Shown: one piece after another, positions 8,202-62,541 of the stretch | Layout of the letters: every line of letters begins with the position of its first letter | Numbering within the stretch: position 1 is the stretch's first letter | Made by a program: the position numbers and the translations under genes | The notes under the pieces: model-generated | The model's input: the letters and a program-made list of their open reading frames with translations, nothing else | The model's database searches: none | Told to the model about the DNA's origin: nothing | Source: Nitrospina sp. | GTDB taxonomy: Bacteria; Nitrospinota; Nitrospinia; Nitrospinales; JACRGP01 | Length of the DNA stretch: 64,000 bases | NCBI GenBank assembly: GCA_024648695.1 | Contig: JACAVV010000019.1 | Coordinates: forward strand, 1-64,000 | Reading direction: 5' to 3'

Positions 8202-8290
8202 TATTCTCGGGGCCATGGCCCTTAAATTTAGATCCAACAAGATAAAACAAATTCCCGGGATTGACAATATTTCATTATTCCCCGAGAATA
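8202..8290. repeat. 11-bp inverted repeat tattctcgggg...ccccgagaata enclosing palindrome gggccatggccc
   Basis: Arms 8202-8212 and 8280-8290 are perfectly complementary; internal palindrome at 8210-8221. Confidence 0.5.
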
Positions 8291-8340
8291 AATTAGCCTG
8301 TAAACATATAATAATTATCCAAGAAGGAAACCCAACGACT

Positions 8341-8901
8341 ATGATGGAAGACCACTCAGATTCGAGCAATTTGGAACAAACCGTTACATTTGAAGAAGGC
8401 AAGCCCTGTCCCGTTAAAATCAAAGGACATGGTGGAGGATTGTCCATCTCATCCGGTGGAGACGCCTTATTGATTGGAGCCTTTCCGCACCCTTCGCAAG
8501 CGCAGATAGAGGCATGGACTGGTGAATGGCGGATCAAGTTGTTCAGCGATTCCGAGTTCCCTGCAATTCCCATGTTTGCTGTTGGCAGTGAAGACTGGAT
8601 TCTGGAAACGCCTTGCAACCCTGCCAGTATGGAACAGGAAGCTCCCGGGTTTTCGGAAGCGCTTTATGCACGGGAAGAGGTGGAGATGCTTGCTGTTTTG
8701 GTTGATAGTGAAACGGGAATCGTTAGAAAAATCACTACCGTTCCCCTTTCAGAAATGCTCATTGAGCGACTGGTGATCTCCTGGAATCCATTCCGCTTTG
8801 GAGACCAGTACACAAAAACATATAACGAGGAAGAGTTTGGTCAACGTATTCAGGAAATTTACAAAAAACCCTCAAGAGAATTATGGAACGCTTCCTGGTA
8901 A
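8341..8901 (+). CDS. Hypothetical protein
   Basis: ATGATGGAAGACC start preceded by ccaagaaggaa; 8215 start in the ORF track is less likely because it lies in the inverted repeat region. Confidence 0.6.
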   Translation: MMEDHSDSSNLEQTVTFEEGKPCPVKIKGHGGGLSISSGGDALLIGAFPHPSQAQIEAWTGEWRIKLFSDSEFPAIPMFAVGSEDWILETPCNPASMEQEAPGFSEALYAREEVEMLAVLVDSETGIVRKITTVPLSEMLIERLVISWNPFRFGDQYTKTYNEEEFGQRIQEIYKKPSRELWNASW

Positions 8902-8956
8902 TACGCTCTCATTTCAGTGAGGGGAACCGAACCTCAACCCAATATGGCCAATACCT

Positions 8957-9076
8957 TCAATAAAAATCTTCATAATCCAGGATAAATAGGCCTAAACTTG
9001 GGCCAATCACAACCAAAAAAAATATGATCACAATGGAAACAAATAAAATTATCAAGATATCATTAGAAGAACCCAT
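8957..9076 (-). CDS. Small membrane protein, 39 aa, paralog B of a tandem pair
   Basis: MGSSNDILIILFVSIVIIFFLVVIGPSLGLFILDYEDFY; 21/38 identical to the neighbouring ORF with synonymous codon differences. Confidence 0.75.
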   Translation of the reverse strand: MGSSNDILIILFVSIVIIFFLVVIGPSLGLFILDYEDFY

Positions 9077-9120
9077 TAAACATTAAGTCCCAATAGAATA
9101 ATTACTTTTTCCTATCCTGA

Positions 9121-9237
9121 TCAATAGTCTTCATAATCCTGTATAAATATGCCTAAAGCGGGACCTATGACCAGAAAAAAAAGTAACATTGCAACTAATA
9201 TCAAAAATATAATAAACGCATCATTTGATGATCCCAT
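9121..9237 (-). CDS. Small membrane protein, 38 aa, paralog A of a tandem pair
   Basis: MGSSNDAFIIFLILVAMLLFFLVIGPALGIFIQDYEDY; see 8957-9076. Confidence 0.75.
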   Translation of the reverse strand: MGSSNDAFIIFLILVAMLLFFLVIGPALGIFIQDYEDY

Positions 9238-9291
9238 ACAACCAAATACCTTATAAAACTAACCAGCCTAAGTAATGTATGAAATGATTTC

Positions 9292-9327
9292 GGGCTTTAG
9301 TATCATTTGGTAAAAAGCCCATTTTTT
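9292..9327 (+). terminator. Terminator-like hairpin
   Basis: GGGCTTT (9292-9298) / AAAGCCC (9314-9320) followed by attttttc. Confidence 0.45.
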
Positions 9328-9388
9328 CATGAAAAGGATTAAAAGATTCCCTTAAATTCAAGCGATGGAATCGCTTGGTAATCTCTCC

Positions 9389-10600
9389 TCAATCATCATA
9401 TTCATCATCCTCCAGTTCTTCCTCCTCGATTTCTTCTTCCAGTTCTTCGACATCTTCGAATTCTTCCTCTTCCTCCTCCTCTTCTTCCTCTTCTTCTTCT
9501 CGTTCAAGGACAGGATATTCGAGATTTTCCATGAACTCAGACTCTCTTAATGCGTCAAGGCCATCTTCATCGTATGAATTACCTTCTATATATAGTTTGA
9601 TTAAATTGGCCATGAACTCAGATTCTGCAATGGCGACAAGGCCATCATTTCCCATTTCAGTGTTTTCTATCATTAGAAGGGTCAAATGAGAGAAGGTTTC
9701 AGACCGAGCTATGATTTGCACCCCTTCATCGCCAATTTTATTTCGATCCAAAGAAAGAACTTGCAAATTGGCCATATGGGGAGAATCGGCAAGGTATTTG
9801 ATACCCTGAGCAGTTATATTATTTATCTCCAGATACAAATGGGTAATTTCTTTCATCTCCTCGCTTTCGGAAAGAACTTTTAACTCGAAATCACTTATAT
9901 TTTGATGGCTCAGATCCAGCGTTTTACCCTCATCCTTGATTCGATTTCGAATTTTTCCCAAAACCAAAAACCTGGAAATACATTGTTTACCAACATCGGT
10001 CAAAGGGTTATCAGATAAATCAACCGTTTGCAGTTTTGGAAAGTTTCTGGACTCGGACAGGACTTTCGCACCTTCATCGGTGATTTTGTTTCTGCGTAAA
10101 TCAAGCGACTCCAGTTCGCTCAGGGTCCGTGCCTGCGATATGAGTTTCAAACCTTCATCGGTGATCTCGTTTTCGGATAATGCCAGAGTGGTCAAGAATT
10201 TAAAATTTTCTGAGTTCACCAGGGTCTTAACGCCTTCATCCCCAATTGAATTCCAGGCCAAACGTAATGACTTCAGATTCAGCAAGCCCTCAGATTCGGC
10301 GAGGTATTTAATACCCTCGTCCCCAATCTTGTTTTTGTATAATTTCAAATGCTGTAAGTTGGTCAGCGACTTGGACTCTGCAATCGCTTTCCCTGCCTCC
10401 GGACCCAGCTTGTTATTAGAAAGAATCAATCGTTTCAATTGTTTAATCGACCTTGACTTAGCTAAAGCCTTAACACCTTCATCGCCCAACTTGGTGAAGT
10501 TAAAATCCAGAGTTTCATAATCGCGACTCAATTTGAAACCGTTCCGGATAATTCCTTCAATGTTATAGAATTTCTTTGCTACCATGAACCGCCCCTTCAA
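9389..10600 (-). CDS. Leucine-rich repeat protein (ribonuclease-inhibitor-type LRRs) with C-terminal polyacidic tail
   Basis: Repeats of ~27-28 aa (L.LRLAWNSIGDEGVKTL..S); C-terminus EREEEEEEEEEEEEEEFEDVEELEEEIEEEELEDDEYDD; no signal peptide visible. Confidence 0.85.
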   Translation of the reverse strand: MKGRFMVAKKFYNIEGIIRNGFKLSRDYETLDFNFTKLGDEGVKALAKSRSIKQLKRLILSNNKLGPEAGKAIAESKSLTNLQHLKLYKNKIGDEGIKYLAESEGLLNLKSLRLAWNSIGDEGVKTLVNSENFKFLTTLALSENEITDEGLKLISQARTLSELESLDLRRNKITDEGAKVLSESRNFPKLQTVDLSDNPLTDVGKQCISRFLVLGKIRNRIKDEGKTLDLSHQNISDFELKVLSESEEMKEITHLYLEINNITAQGIKYLADSPHMANLQVLSLDRNKIGDEGVQIIARSETFSHLTLLMIENTEMGNDGLVAIAESEFMANLIKLYIEGNSYDEDGLDALRESEFMENLEYPVLEREEEEEEEEEEEEEFEDVEELEEEIEEEELEDDEYDD

Positions 10601-61011: not shown

Positions 61012-62541
61012 ATGAAAATCAAACAATTCTTTATTTTACTTTTGTTTGCATGCTTACTGTATTCTCCAACAGATTCCTTTGCTTATACATGGACAGATAG
61101 TGACGGTGTCGTTCATGAGGGTTCACTTTCCGAGTATCGTGATTGGCGAAGGGCTGAAAGGTTACGGTTGAGGAAACTTAGAGAAGAAGAAAAAACTTCA
61201 ACTACGCAAGAAACCACTACCCCCGAGGAAACCACTACCACGGAAGAATCGACAACTACAGAAGAAACGACTACCACCGAGGAAACTACAACAACGGAAG
61301 AAACCACTACTACAGAAGAATCTACAACCACAGAAGAAACCACGACTACCGAAGAATCGACAACCACGGAAGAAACCACGACTACCGAAGAATCGACAAC
61401 TACAGAAGAAACCACTACTACAGAAGAATCGACAACCACGGAAGAAACCACTTCCACTGAAGAAGCTTCAACTTCGGAAGAGACAACTGAAGAAGCCGCT
61501 GAAGAGACTACTGAAGAGTCTGATGATGGGTTGGAACATGCCAACAGTATCTGGAAGCGACCTATTCCTGATAACGCAACCTACGTGGATGTGCCTGAGT
61601 TGAAGGAACTGTTCGTTGGTCTGACTAATTGGGGTTCTGGTGGAGCCAATGTGGGTGTATACTATGCTACTGAAGCAAGTCCACGCAGAAAAATTTATTA
61701 CAACGTTGATGCCTGGAGAGGTGTGGCCTATTGGGGCTGGAAACGTCATGGTAACAGCCTCTCCACGGAAGCGGAAATCATGGAAAAAGCAAGTTTGATT
61801 TTCCCCCAGGAAAGCAATGTTTATTCCACAACCGTTCCCGAAGGCTGGGACCTTCCAAATGAATTCCATGGCCGAAGCGATGGTTTCCATGATCCCAATC
61901 CATATGTTCCGAATGGTGTCATCCCTTCCGGAGATACCGATGGTCATATGGCCGTCCATCAGCCTAATGGTTGGGTTCTTGAAACCTATGCAACCATAGT
62001 TTTGTCAACTGGCGATATCGTTTGCCTGCAATACAGTTACACCGATCCTACTGCTGATGGCACTGGATGGTGGAATGGCCGAACAGCTTCCTTGCTACCT
62101 AATTACCAGGGAGCTATCCTTGCAAGTGAATTTAAAAATGCCAAAGTTGACCATGCCCTGGCGGTTTTGATTGGGGCAGACTATTTAAAGAAAACCTACA
62201 TTTGGCCCGCATTTGCTTATGATCGAAACCCCCACGATTACACGGGGAATTTACCGATGGGAACCTTGCTGGCAATTCCAAAGGATTTCGATTTAAATTC
62301 GCTTAATTGGACTCCTGAAGGCAGGGCGATCGCTGAAGCCGCTCAAAAATATGGAATCTATATCAATGACCGGGGTGGTCAGGGCGGAATGTCATTTCGG
62401 GTCCAGGAAACCCCGGCAGTACCGTCTTATTCCTGGCCATTAAATTCGGATCTTATTAAAATCGTGTCCAGGCTAAAATGGGTCACAAGCAACAAACCTC
62501 TTCCAGAGGATCATGACATTGACCCCAATGACCCGAGATAA
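61012..62541 (+). CDS. Secreted protein with (TTTEE)n repeat linker and unknown C-terminal domain
   Basis: Signal peptide MKIKQFFILLLFACLLYSPTDSFA; DUF4124-like YTWTDSDGVVHEG; Thr/Glu pentapeptide repeats; large Trp-rich globular domain. Confidence 0.8.
   Translation: MKIKQFFILLLFACLLYSPTDSFAYTWTDSDGVVHEGSLSEYRDWRRAERLRLRKLREEEKTSTTQETTTPEETTTTEESTTTEETTTTEETTTTEETTTTEESTTTEETTTTEESTTTEETTTTEESTTTEETTTTEESTTTEETTSTEEASTSEETTEEAAEETTEESDDGLEHANSIWKRPIPDNATYVDVPELKELFVGLTNWGSGGANVGVYYATEASPRRKIYYNVDAWRGVAYWGWKRHGNSLSTEAEIMEKASLIFPQESNVYSTTVPEGWDLPNEFHGRSDGFHDPNPYVPNGVIPSGDTDGHMAVHQPNGWVLETYATIVLSTGDIVCLQYSYTDPTADGTGWWNGRTASLLPNYQGAILASEFKNAKVDHALAVLIGADYLKKTYIWPAFAYDRNPHDYTGNLPMGTLLAIPKDFDLNSLNWTPEGRAIAEAAQKYGIYINDRGGQGGMSFRVQETPAVPSYSWPLNSDLIKIVSRLKWVTSNKPLPEDHDIDPNDPR
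61200..61510. repeat. In-frame 15-bp minisatellite encoding TTTEE/STTTEE units
   Basis: Repeated actaccgaagaatcgacaaccacggaagaaaccac-type units. Confidence 0.85.

What the first reader, a model, noticed from the sequence alone, without database searches (positions are those of the whole stretch)
8957..9237. Unannotated tandem pair of paralogous 38/39-aa membrane microproteins (MGSSND...VIGPxLGxFIxDYED)
Two minus-strand ORFs missing from the ORF track encode MGSSNDAFIIFLILVAMLLFFLVIGPALGIFIQDYEDY (9237-9121) and MGSSNDILIILFVSIVIIFFLVVIGPSLGLFILDYEDFY (9076-8957). They align without gaps over 38 residues with 21 identities. At those 21 positions, 11 codons differ synonymously (for example GGA/GGT, TCA/TCT, GTC/GTG, GGT/GGC, GAC/GAT). 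Divergence is concentrated in the hydrophobic core, while the polar N-cap, the G-P-x-L-G kink and the acidic DYED tail are fixed. This pattern is hard to explain without selection on the peptide. I recognise no known small-protein family, and they lie downstream of an LRR gene on the same strand.
Basis: seen in the sequence. Interest (0 to 1): 0.85.

Follow-up and report, generated by a model that had tools for sequence, protein, structure and literature searches.

The report
Tandem pair of membrane microprotein genes
Two neighbouring, overlooked bacterial genes each make a 38-39-residue protein that is essentially one membrane-spanning helix with an acidic tail; their codon pattern shows that the proteins are real and under selection, but no relative was found elsewhere and their job is not known.

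Summary
Two minus-strand ORFs (9237-9121, 38 aa; 9076-8957, 39 aa) align without gaps; they share 21/38 residues, 11 of them with different synonymous codons. Differences by codon position are 8/6/21, dN 0.28, dS 1.24; none of 20,000 column shuffles scores as well. DNA similarity is 69% inside the ORFs and background (25-34%) just outside. The coding claim is close to certain, though no expression data exist here. Each peptide is one very hydrophobic helix with no K, R or H, a conserved GPxxG (GxxxG) step and a fixed DYED tail. The genome is Nitrospinota, the only held one of its genus. The pair occurs once in it; no relative was found in the 77 other held genomes of the phylum or in family, structure, phage, plasmid or viral collections. 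The LRR gene and the convergent unknown gene are conserved neighbours; in 15 of 19 relatives only 12-152 bp separate them, and none has the pair. The pair is lineage-specific cargo with no shown tie to the LRR gene. Most likely function (inferred): paired single-pass accessory subunits or regulators of a membrane complex. Main rival: type I toxin-like peptides.

The parts
9121..9237 (-). microprotein 1, 38 aa, MGSSNDAFIIFLILVAMLLFFLVIGPALGIFIQDYEDY
   Evidence: AlphaFold2: one helix 2-37, mean pLDDT 93
8957..9076 (-). microprotein 2, 39 aa, paralogue of microprotein 1 (55% identical)
9077..9120 (-). 44-nt spacer between the two ORFs, no terminator-like site; compatible with a two-gene transcript (inferred)
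8902..9388 (.). 487-bp interval (about 27-34% G+C over the ORFs) that carries the pair; the same junction is 12-152 bp in 15 of 19 relatives
9389..10600 (-). LRR protein with Glu-rich C-terminal tail, conserved neighbour; not part of the pair's system as far as tested
8215..8901 (+). conserved unknown protein, convergent to the pair; matched in 48 of 61 genomes searched (own included)

Best explanation
Two co-directional, probably co-transcribed genes encode paralogous single-pass membrane microproteins. Shown by computation: protein-coding, under purifying selection, well diverged from each other, predicted as one continuous helix, lineage-restricted. Inferred: each peptide inserts in the cytoplasmic membrane as one helix. 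The conserved second half of the helix, with the small-xxx-small step G25-P26-x-x-G29, packs against a partner helix (each other and/or a larger membrane protein), and the acidic DYED tail makes a fixed polar contact at the membrane face. They would act as non-redundant accessory subunits or regulators of a membrane complex, in the way CydX, KdpF or AcrZ do. The partner is not identified; it is not encoded next to them.
For: Coding and purifying selection. Single helix, GRAVY 1.4-1.7, best 19-residue Kyte-Doolittle mean 3.2-3.5. Conserved MGSSND cap, F20-V23-I24-G25-P26-x-L28-G29-x-F31-I32 and DYED, while the first half of the hydrophobic stretch drifts with mostly hydrophobic replacements: fixed ends and one conserved half suggest specific contacts rather than generic membrane disruption. 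dS about 1.2 with both copies intact points to two separately maintained roles. Precedents in papers: CydX is a 37-aa member of the cytochrome bd complex (PMC4325964) and tolerates sequence change (PMC6005532); AcrZ binds AcrB (PMC7267776); two paralogous peptides from one transcript act as a non-redundant pair on respiratory complex III in flies (PMC9681215).
Against: No partner gene is adjacent, whereas such subunits often sit in their complex's operon (general knowledge). Absence from every other held Nitrospinota genome argues against a subunit of a widely shared core complex. Identical residues do not lie on one helical face (moment test p = 0.29). Ribosome-binding signals are weak (-4.0 and -3.9 kcal/mol, within the range of random sites). 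No expression data.
Confidence: 0.42

Rival explanations
1. Type I toxin-like peptides: membrane-active hydrophobic peptides held silent by an antisense or structured RNA, kept as a duplicated locus (as Ldr, Ibs or Zor loci are).
For: Size below 60 aa, one hydrophobic helix, tandem copies in an intergenic, lineage-specific slot. Tandem duplication occurs in the zorO/zorP type I locus (PMC3919570). Fst shows that a type I toxin may carry an acidic C-terminal stretch and depend on a Pro and a Gly in its helix (PMC8309996).
Against: No cationic residue in either peptide; the review names cationic, mostly C-terminal residues as a common feature. Similarity stops at the ORF ends, so no antisense or leader unit was kept in common. 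Promoter-like sites are at chance level, 3 found against 2.8 expected. No unusual leader fold (z -0.86). No match to a toxin model in Pfam or NCBIfam, nor to an Rfam family.
Confidence: 0.2
2. Membrane peptides of a mobile element or phage remnant (holin-like, superinfection or immunity peptides) left in an insertion slot.
For: The LRR/unknown-gene junction holds different cargo in other relatives (gaps of 468, 1862, 1981 and 2705 bp); low G+C of the interval; no orthologue in the phylum.
Against: No phage, plasmid or viral match: best phage hit E = 7, and a viral scan gave no confirmed relative; no recombinase gene beside it and no flanking direct repeats.
Confidence: 0.15
3. A fast-evolving or de novo orphan membrane peptide pair with a lineage-specific role (for example in envelope stress), without a fixed large partner.
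For: No homologue at any level tested; T-rich DNA favours hydrophobic codons; ORF-only similarity.
Against: dS of about 1.2 between copies and the fixed ends show a constrained family that is not recent.
Confidence: 0.18
4. Not genes: chance ORFs or a repeated non-coding element.
For: Short length, weak ribosome-binding signals.
Against: Third-position bias, one favoured frame, 0 of 20,000 column shuffles, similarity bounded by start and stop codons.
Confidence: 0.03

Closest known systems
Single-helix accessory subunits of bacterial membrane complexes (CydX, KdpF, AcrZ)
   Same: Under 50 residues, one helix, often missed by annotation; CydX is known to tolerate sequence change (PMC6005532, PMC4325964)
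   Different: No sequence match to any Pfam or NCBIfam model; no partner gene adjacent; two paralogues in tandem; no basic residues
Type I toxins of the Ldr/Fst, Ibs and Zor kinds
   Same: Short hydrophobic peptides, tandem copies, intergenic
   Different: No cationic residues, ORF-only similarity between copies, no sign of an antisense gene
Sloth1/Sloth2 peptides of Drosophila (PMC9681215)
   Same: Two paralogous small peptides from adjacent reading frames
   Different: Eukaryotic; no sequence relation tested or claimed; analogy of gene arrangement only

Membership tests
Accessory single-helix subunits (CydX / KdpF / AcrZ families) | Match to the family's sequence model | tested here: not met
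   No relevant Pfam or NCBIfam match; no PDB sequence match
Accessory single-helix subunits (CydX / KdpF / AcrZ families) | One transmembrane helix, about 50 aa or fewer | tested here: met
   AlphaFold2 single helix 2-37, pLDDT 93; Kyte-Doolittle 3.2-3.5
Accessory single-helix subunits (CydX / KdpF / AcrZ families) | Gene next to the genes of its complex (common, not universal) | tested here: not met
   Neighbours are an LRR protein and an unknown protein that occur without the pair elsewhere
Accessory single-helix subunits (CydX / KdpF / AcrZ families) | Physical binding to a membrane complex | not testable with these tools
   Needs pull-down or co-purification
Type I toxin-antitoxin systems | Hydrophobic peptide below 60 aa | tested here: met
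Type I toxin-antitoxin systems | Cationic residues, generally C-terminal (common, not universal) | tested here: not met
   0 K/R/H in either peptide; 4 D/E each; feature from PMC8309996
Type I toxin-antitoxin systems | Antisense or divergent small RNA antitoxin | tested here: inconclusive
   Promoter-like sites at chance level, no Rfam match, no shared non-coding flank; RNA-seq would be needed
Type I toxin-antitoxin systems | Toxicity on overexpression | not testable with these tools
   Bench assay needed
   19 relatives keep the LRR next to the same convergent gene, none with the pair

The most novel reading that the evidence does not exclude
A new, well-diverged family of heterodimeric membrane microproteins, acidic-tailed and lacking any basic residue, that modulates a membrane complex in one Nitrospinota lineage and travels as small cargo between conserved genes.
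Probability: 0.25. Interest if true: 0.55.

Novelty: new member of a known kind. Interest (0 to 1): 0.38.

Why it matters
It is a clear case where two short ORFs that gene callers tend to skip can be shown to be genes from one genome alone, because the paralogues test each other. The pair adds an undescribed microprotein family in a phylum that includes the most abundant known marine nitrite oxidisers (PMC10839748), and gives a ready test for whether tandem microproteins act as heterodimers.

Tried and rejected
Further copies in the genome: only two. Relatives by single sequence and by profile: the best hits are stretches of larger reading frames with E = 0.01-0.6 and were rejected as chance hydrophobic matches. 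A simulation shows that the profile would find nearly all orthologues of at least 55% identity and 90% of those at 45%, but few at 35%, so very diverged relatives may be missed. Vibrio phage hit (E = 7, N-terminus of a larger protein): rejected. Weak Pfam hits (Pox_A9 E = 0.034, SMIM5_18_22, S1FA) and NCBIfam HpsC (E = 0.056) are below their cut-offs and taken as hydrophobic-helix noise. Helical-face conservation: not significant. RNA structure and antisense promoters: nothing above chance.

Full report
What is there. Two ORFs on the minus strand, 9237-9121 (38 aa) and 9076-8957 (39 aa), are exactly as described. They are 44 nt apart and lie in a 487-bp interval between the stop of an LRR gene (9389) and the stop of a convergent gene of unknown function (8901). 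Rfam finds nothing in the window but one tRNA.

Are they genes? Yes, as far as sequence can say. The two peptides align without gaps over 38 residues, 21 identical; 11 of the 21 are encoded by different synonymous codons, and differences fall 8/6/21 on codon positions. The in-frame protein score is 121 with no stop, the other five frames score 7 to 77 with 3 to 9 stops, and none of 20,000 shuffles of the alignment columns reaches the observed score; dN is 0.28 and dS 1.24, ratio about 0.22. dS rests on 25 synonymous sites, so its exact value is rough. Of 1,387 nearby same-strand short-ORF pairs in the window the next best scores 39, and 15 random windows never exceed 46. DNA similarity is 79/114 in the ORFs but 15/44 just upstream and 11/44 just downstream: only the reading frame has been kept. 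In-frame stops lie 2 codons (second ORF) and 7 codons (first ORF) upstream of the ATGs, which fixes both starts. Ribosome-binding signals are weak for both, which lowers confidence in strong expression, not in coding.

What the proteins look like. Each is a single, very hydrophobic helix (Kyte-Doolittle maximum 3.2 and 3.5; AlphaFold2 helix 2-37 with mean pLDDT 93, from a two-row alignment). Neither has a Lys, Arg or His; each has four acidic residues. MGSSND at the start and DYED at the end are fixed. Within the hydrophobic stretch, 9 of 13 positions in the second half are identical against 2 of 13 in the first half (p = 0.015). The second half holds G25-P26-x-L28-G29, a GxxxG step, often a helix-dimerisation motif (PMC7549839). 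The identical residues do not fall on one face of an ideal helix (p = 0.29), so the packing idea is an inference.

Where it occurs. The genome (4.2 Mb, 56 contigs) holds only these two copies. Syntenic loci come from records titled Nitrospinaceae and Nitrospirae, so I place the genome in Nitrospinota; it is the only held genome of its genus. Neither a single-sequence search of 60 relatives nor a profile search of the 78 held genomes of the phylum, own included, finds a relative. Simulated orthologues at 45% identity would be found nine times in ten, at 35% about one time in six. There is no match in Pfam, NCBIfam, PHROGs, PADLOC-DB or PDB that passes a cut-off and none that stands in phages, plasmids or viral contigs.

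The neighbourhood. The order alpha/beta-hydrolase, LRR protein, convergent unknown protein, metallo-beta-lactamase-fold protein is conserved across the order. In 15 of the 19 relatives where LRR and unknown gene are both readable side by side, 12-152 bp separate them and there is no strongly hydrophobic short ORF; in four the gap is 468 to 2,705 bp and holds other cargo. In the four same-family genomes held, the unknown gene was found in three, without the LRR gene beside it.

How it most likely works. The fixed ends, the conserved half-helix and two well-diverged, intact copies fit a pair of non-redundant single-pass proteins that pack against each other or against a larger membrane protein, as CydX, KdpF and AcrZ do with theirs. 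This is an inference: the partner is unknown and not adjacent. The main rival is a type I toxin-like peptide pair. Size, hydrophobicity, tandem copies and lineage restriction fit; the absence of any basic residue, the lack of shared non-coding flank and the lack of any antisense or structure signal speak against it. Fst shows that an acidic stretch does not exclude a type I toxin, so the rival stays open. A phage or mobile remnant, or a free-standing orphan peptide pair, cannot be excluded.

Verdict. Real genes of a known general kind (small membrane proteins), of an undescribed family, with function open. Interest is moderate: the coding evidence is clean, the mechanism is not established, and the family could not be extended beyond one genome.

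Noticed in passing
window 8901-9389; L052, L054, L055, L056: The junction between the LRR gene and the convergent unknown gene is a variable insertion slot: 12-152 bp in most relatives, but 468-2705 bp with other cargo in four (by reading only: a YCII-like protein, a sensor histidine kinase, a restriction-endonuclease-like protein with a lipoprotein).
   Followed up: partly
L049:3473-3918: In a same-family genome, two small ORFs that read like a HicB/HicA toxin-antitoxin pair lie beside the 3' end of the unknown gene. Recognised by eye only.
   Followed up: no
window 9389-10600: LRR protein with a long Glu/Asp-rich C-terminal tail, conserved beside an alpha/beta-hydrolase and a convergent unknown gene across the order; the acidic tail is kept in the copies read.
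   Followed up: partly
window 8215-8901: Unknown protein of about 180 conserved residues (the first ~48 aa of the listed ORF are probably upstream of the true start), matched in 48 of 61 genomes searched (own included), no Pfam match, one weak PHROG match (phrog_12389, E = 8e-6).
   Followed up: partly
window 61012-62541: Secreted-looking protein with a long TTTEE(S/T) repeat tract before its C-terminal domain.
   Followed up: no
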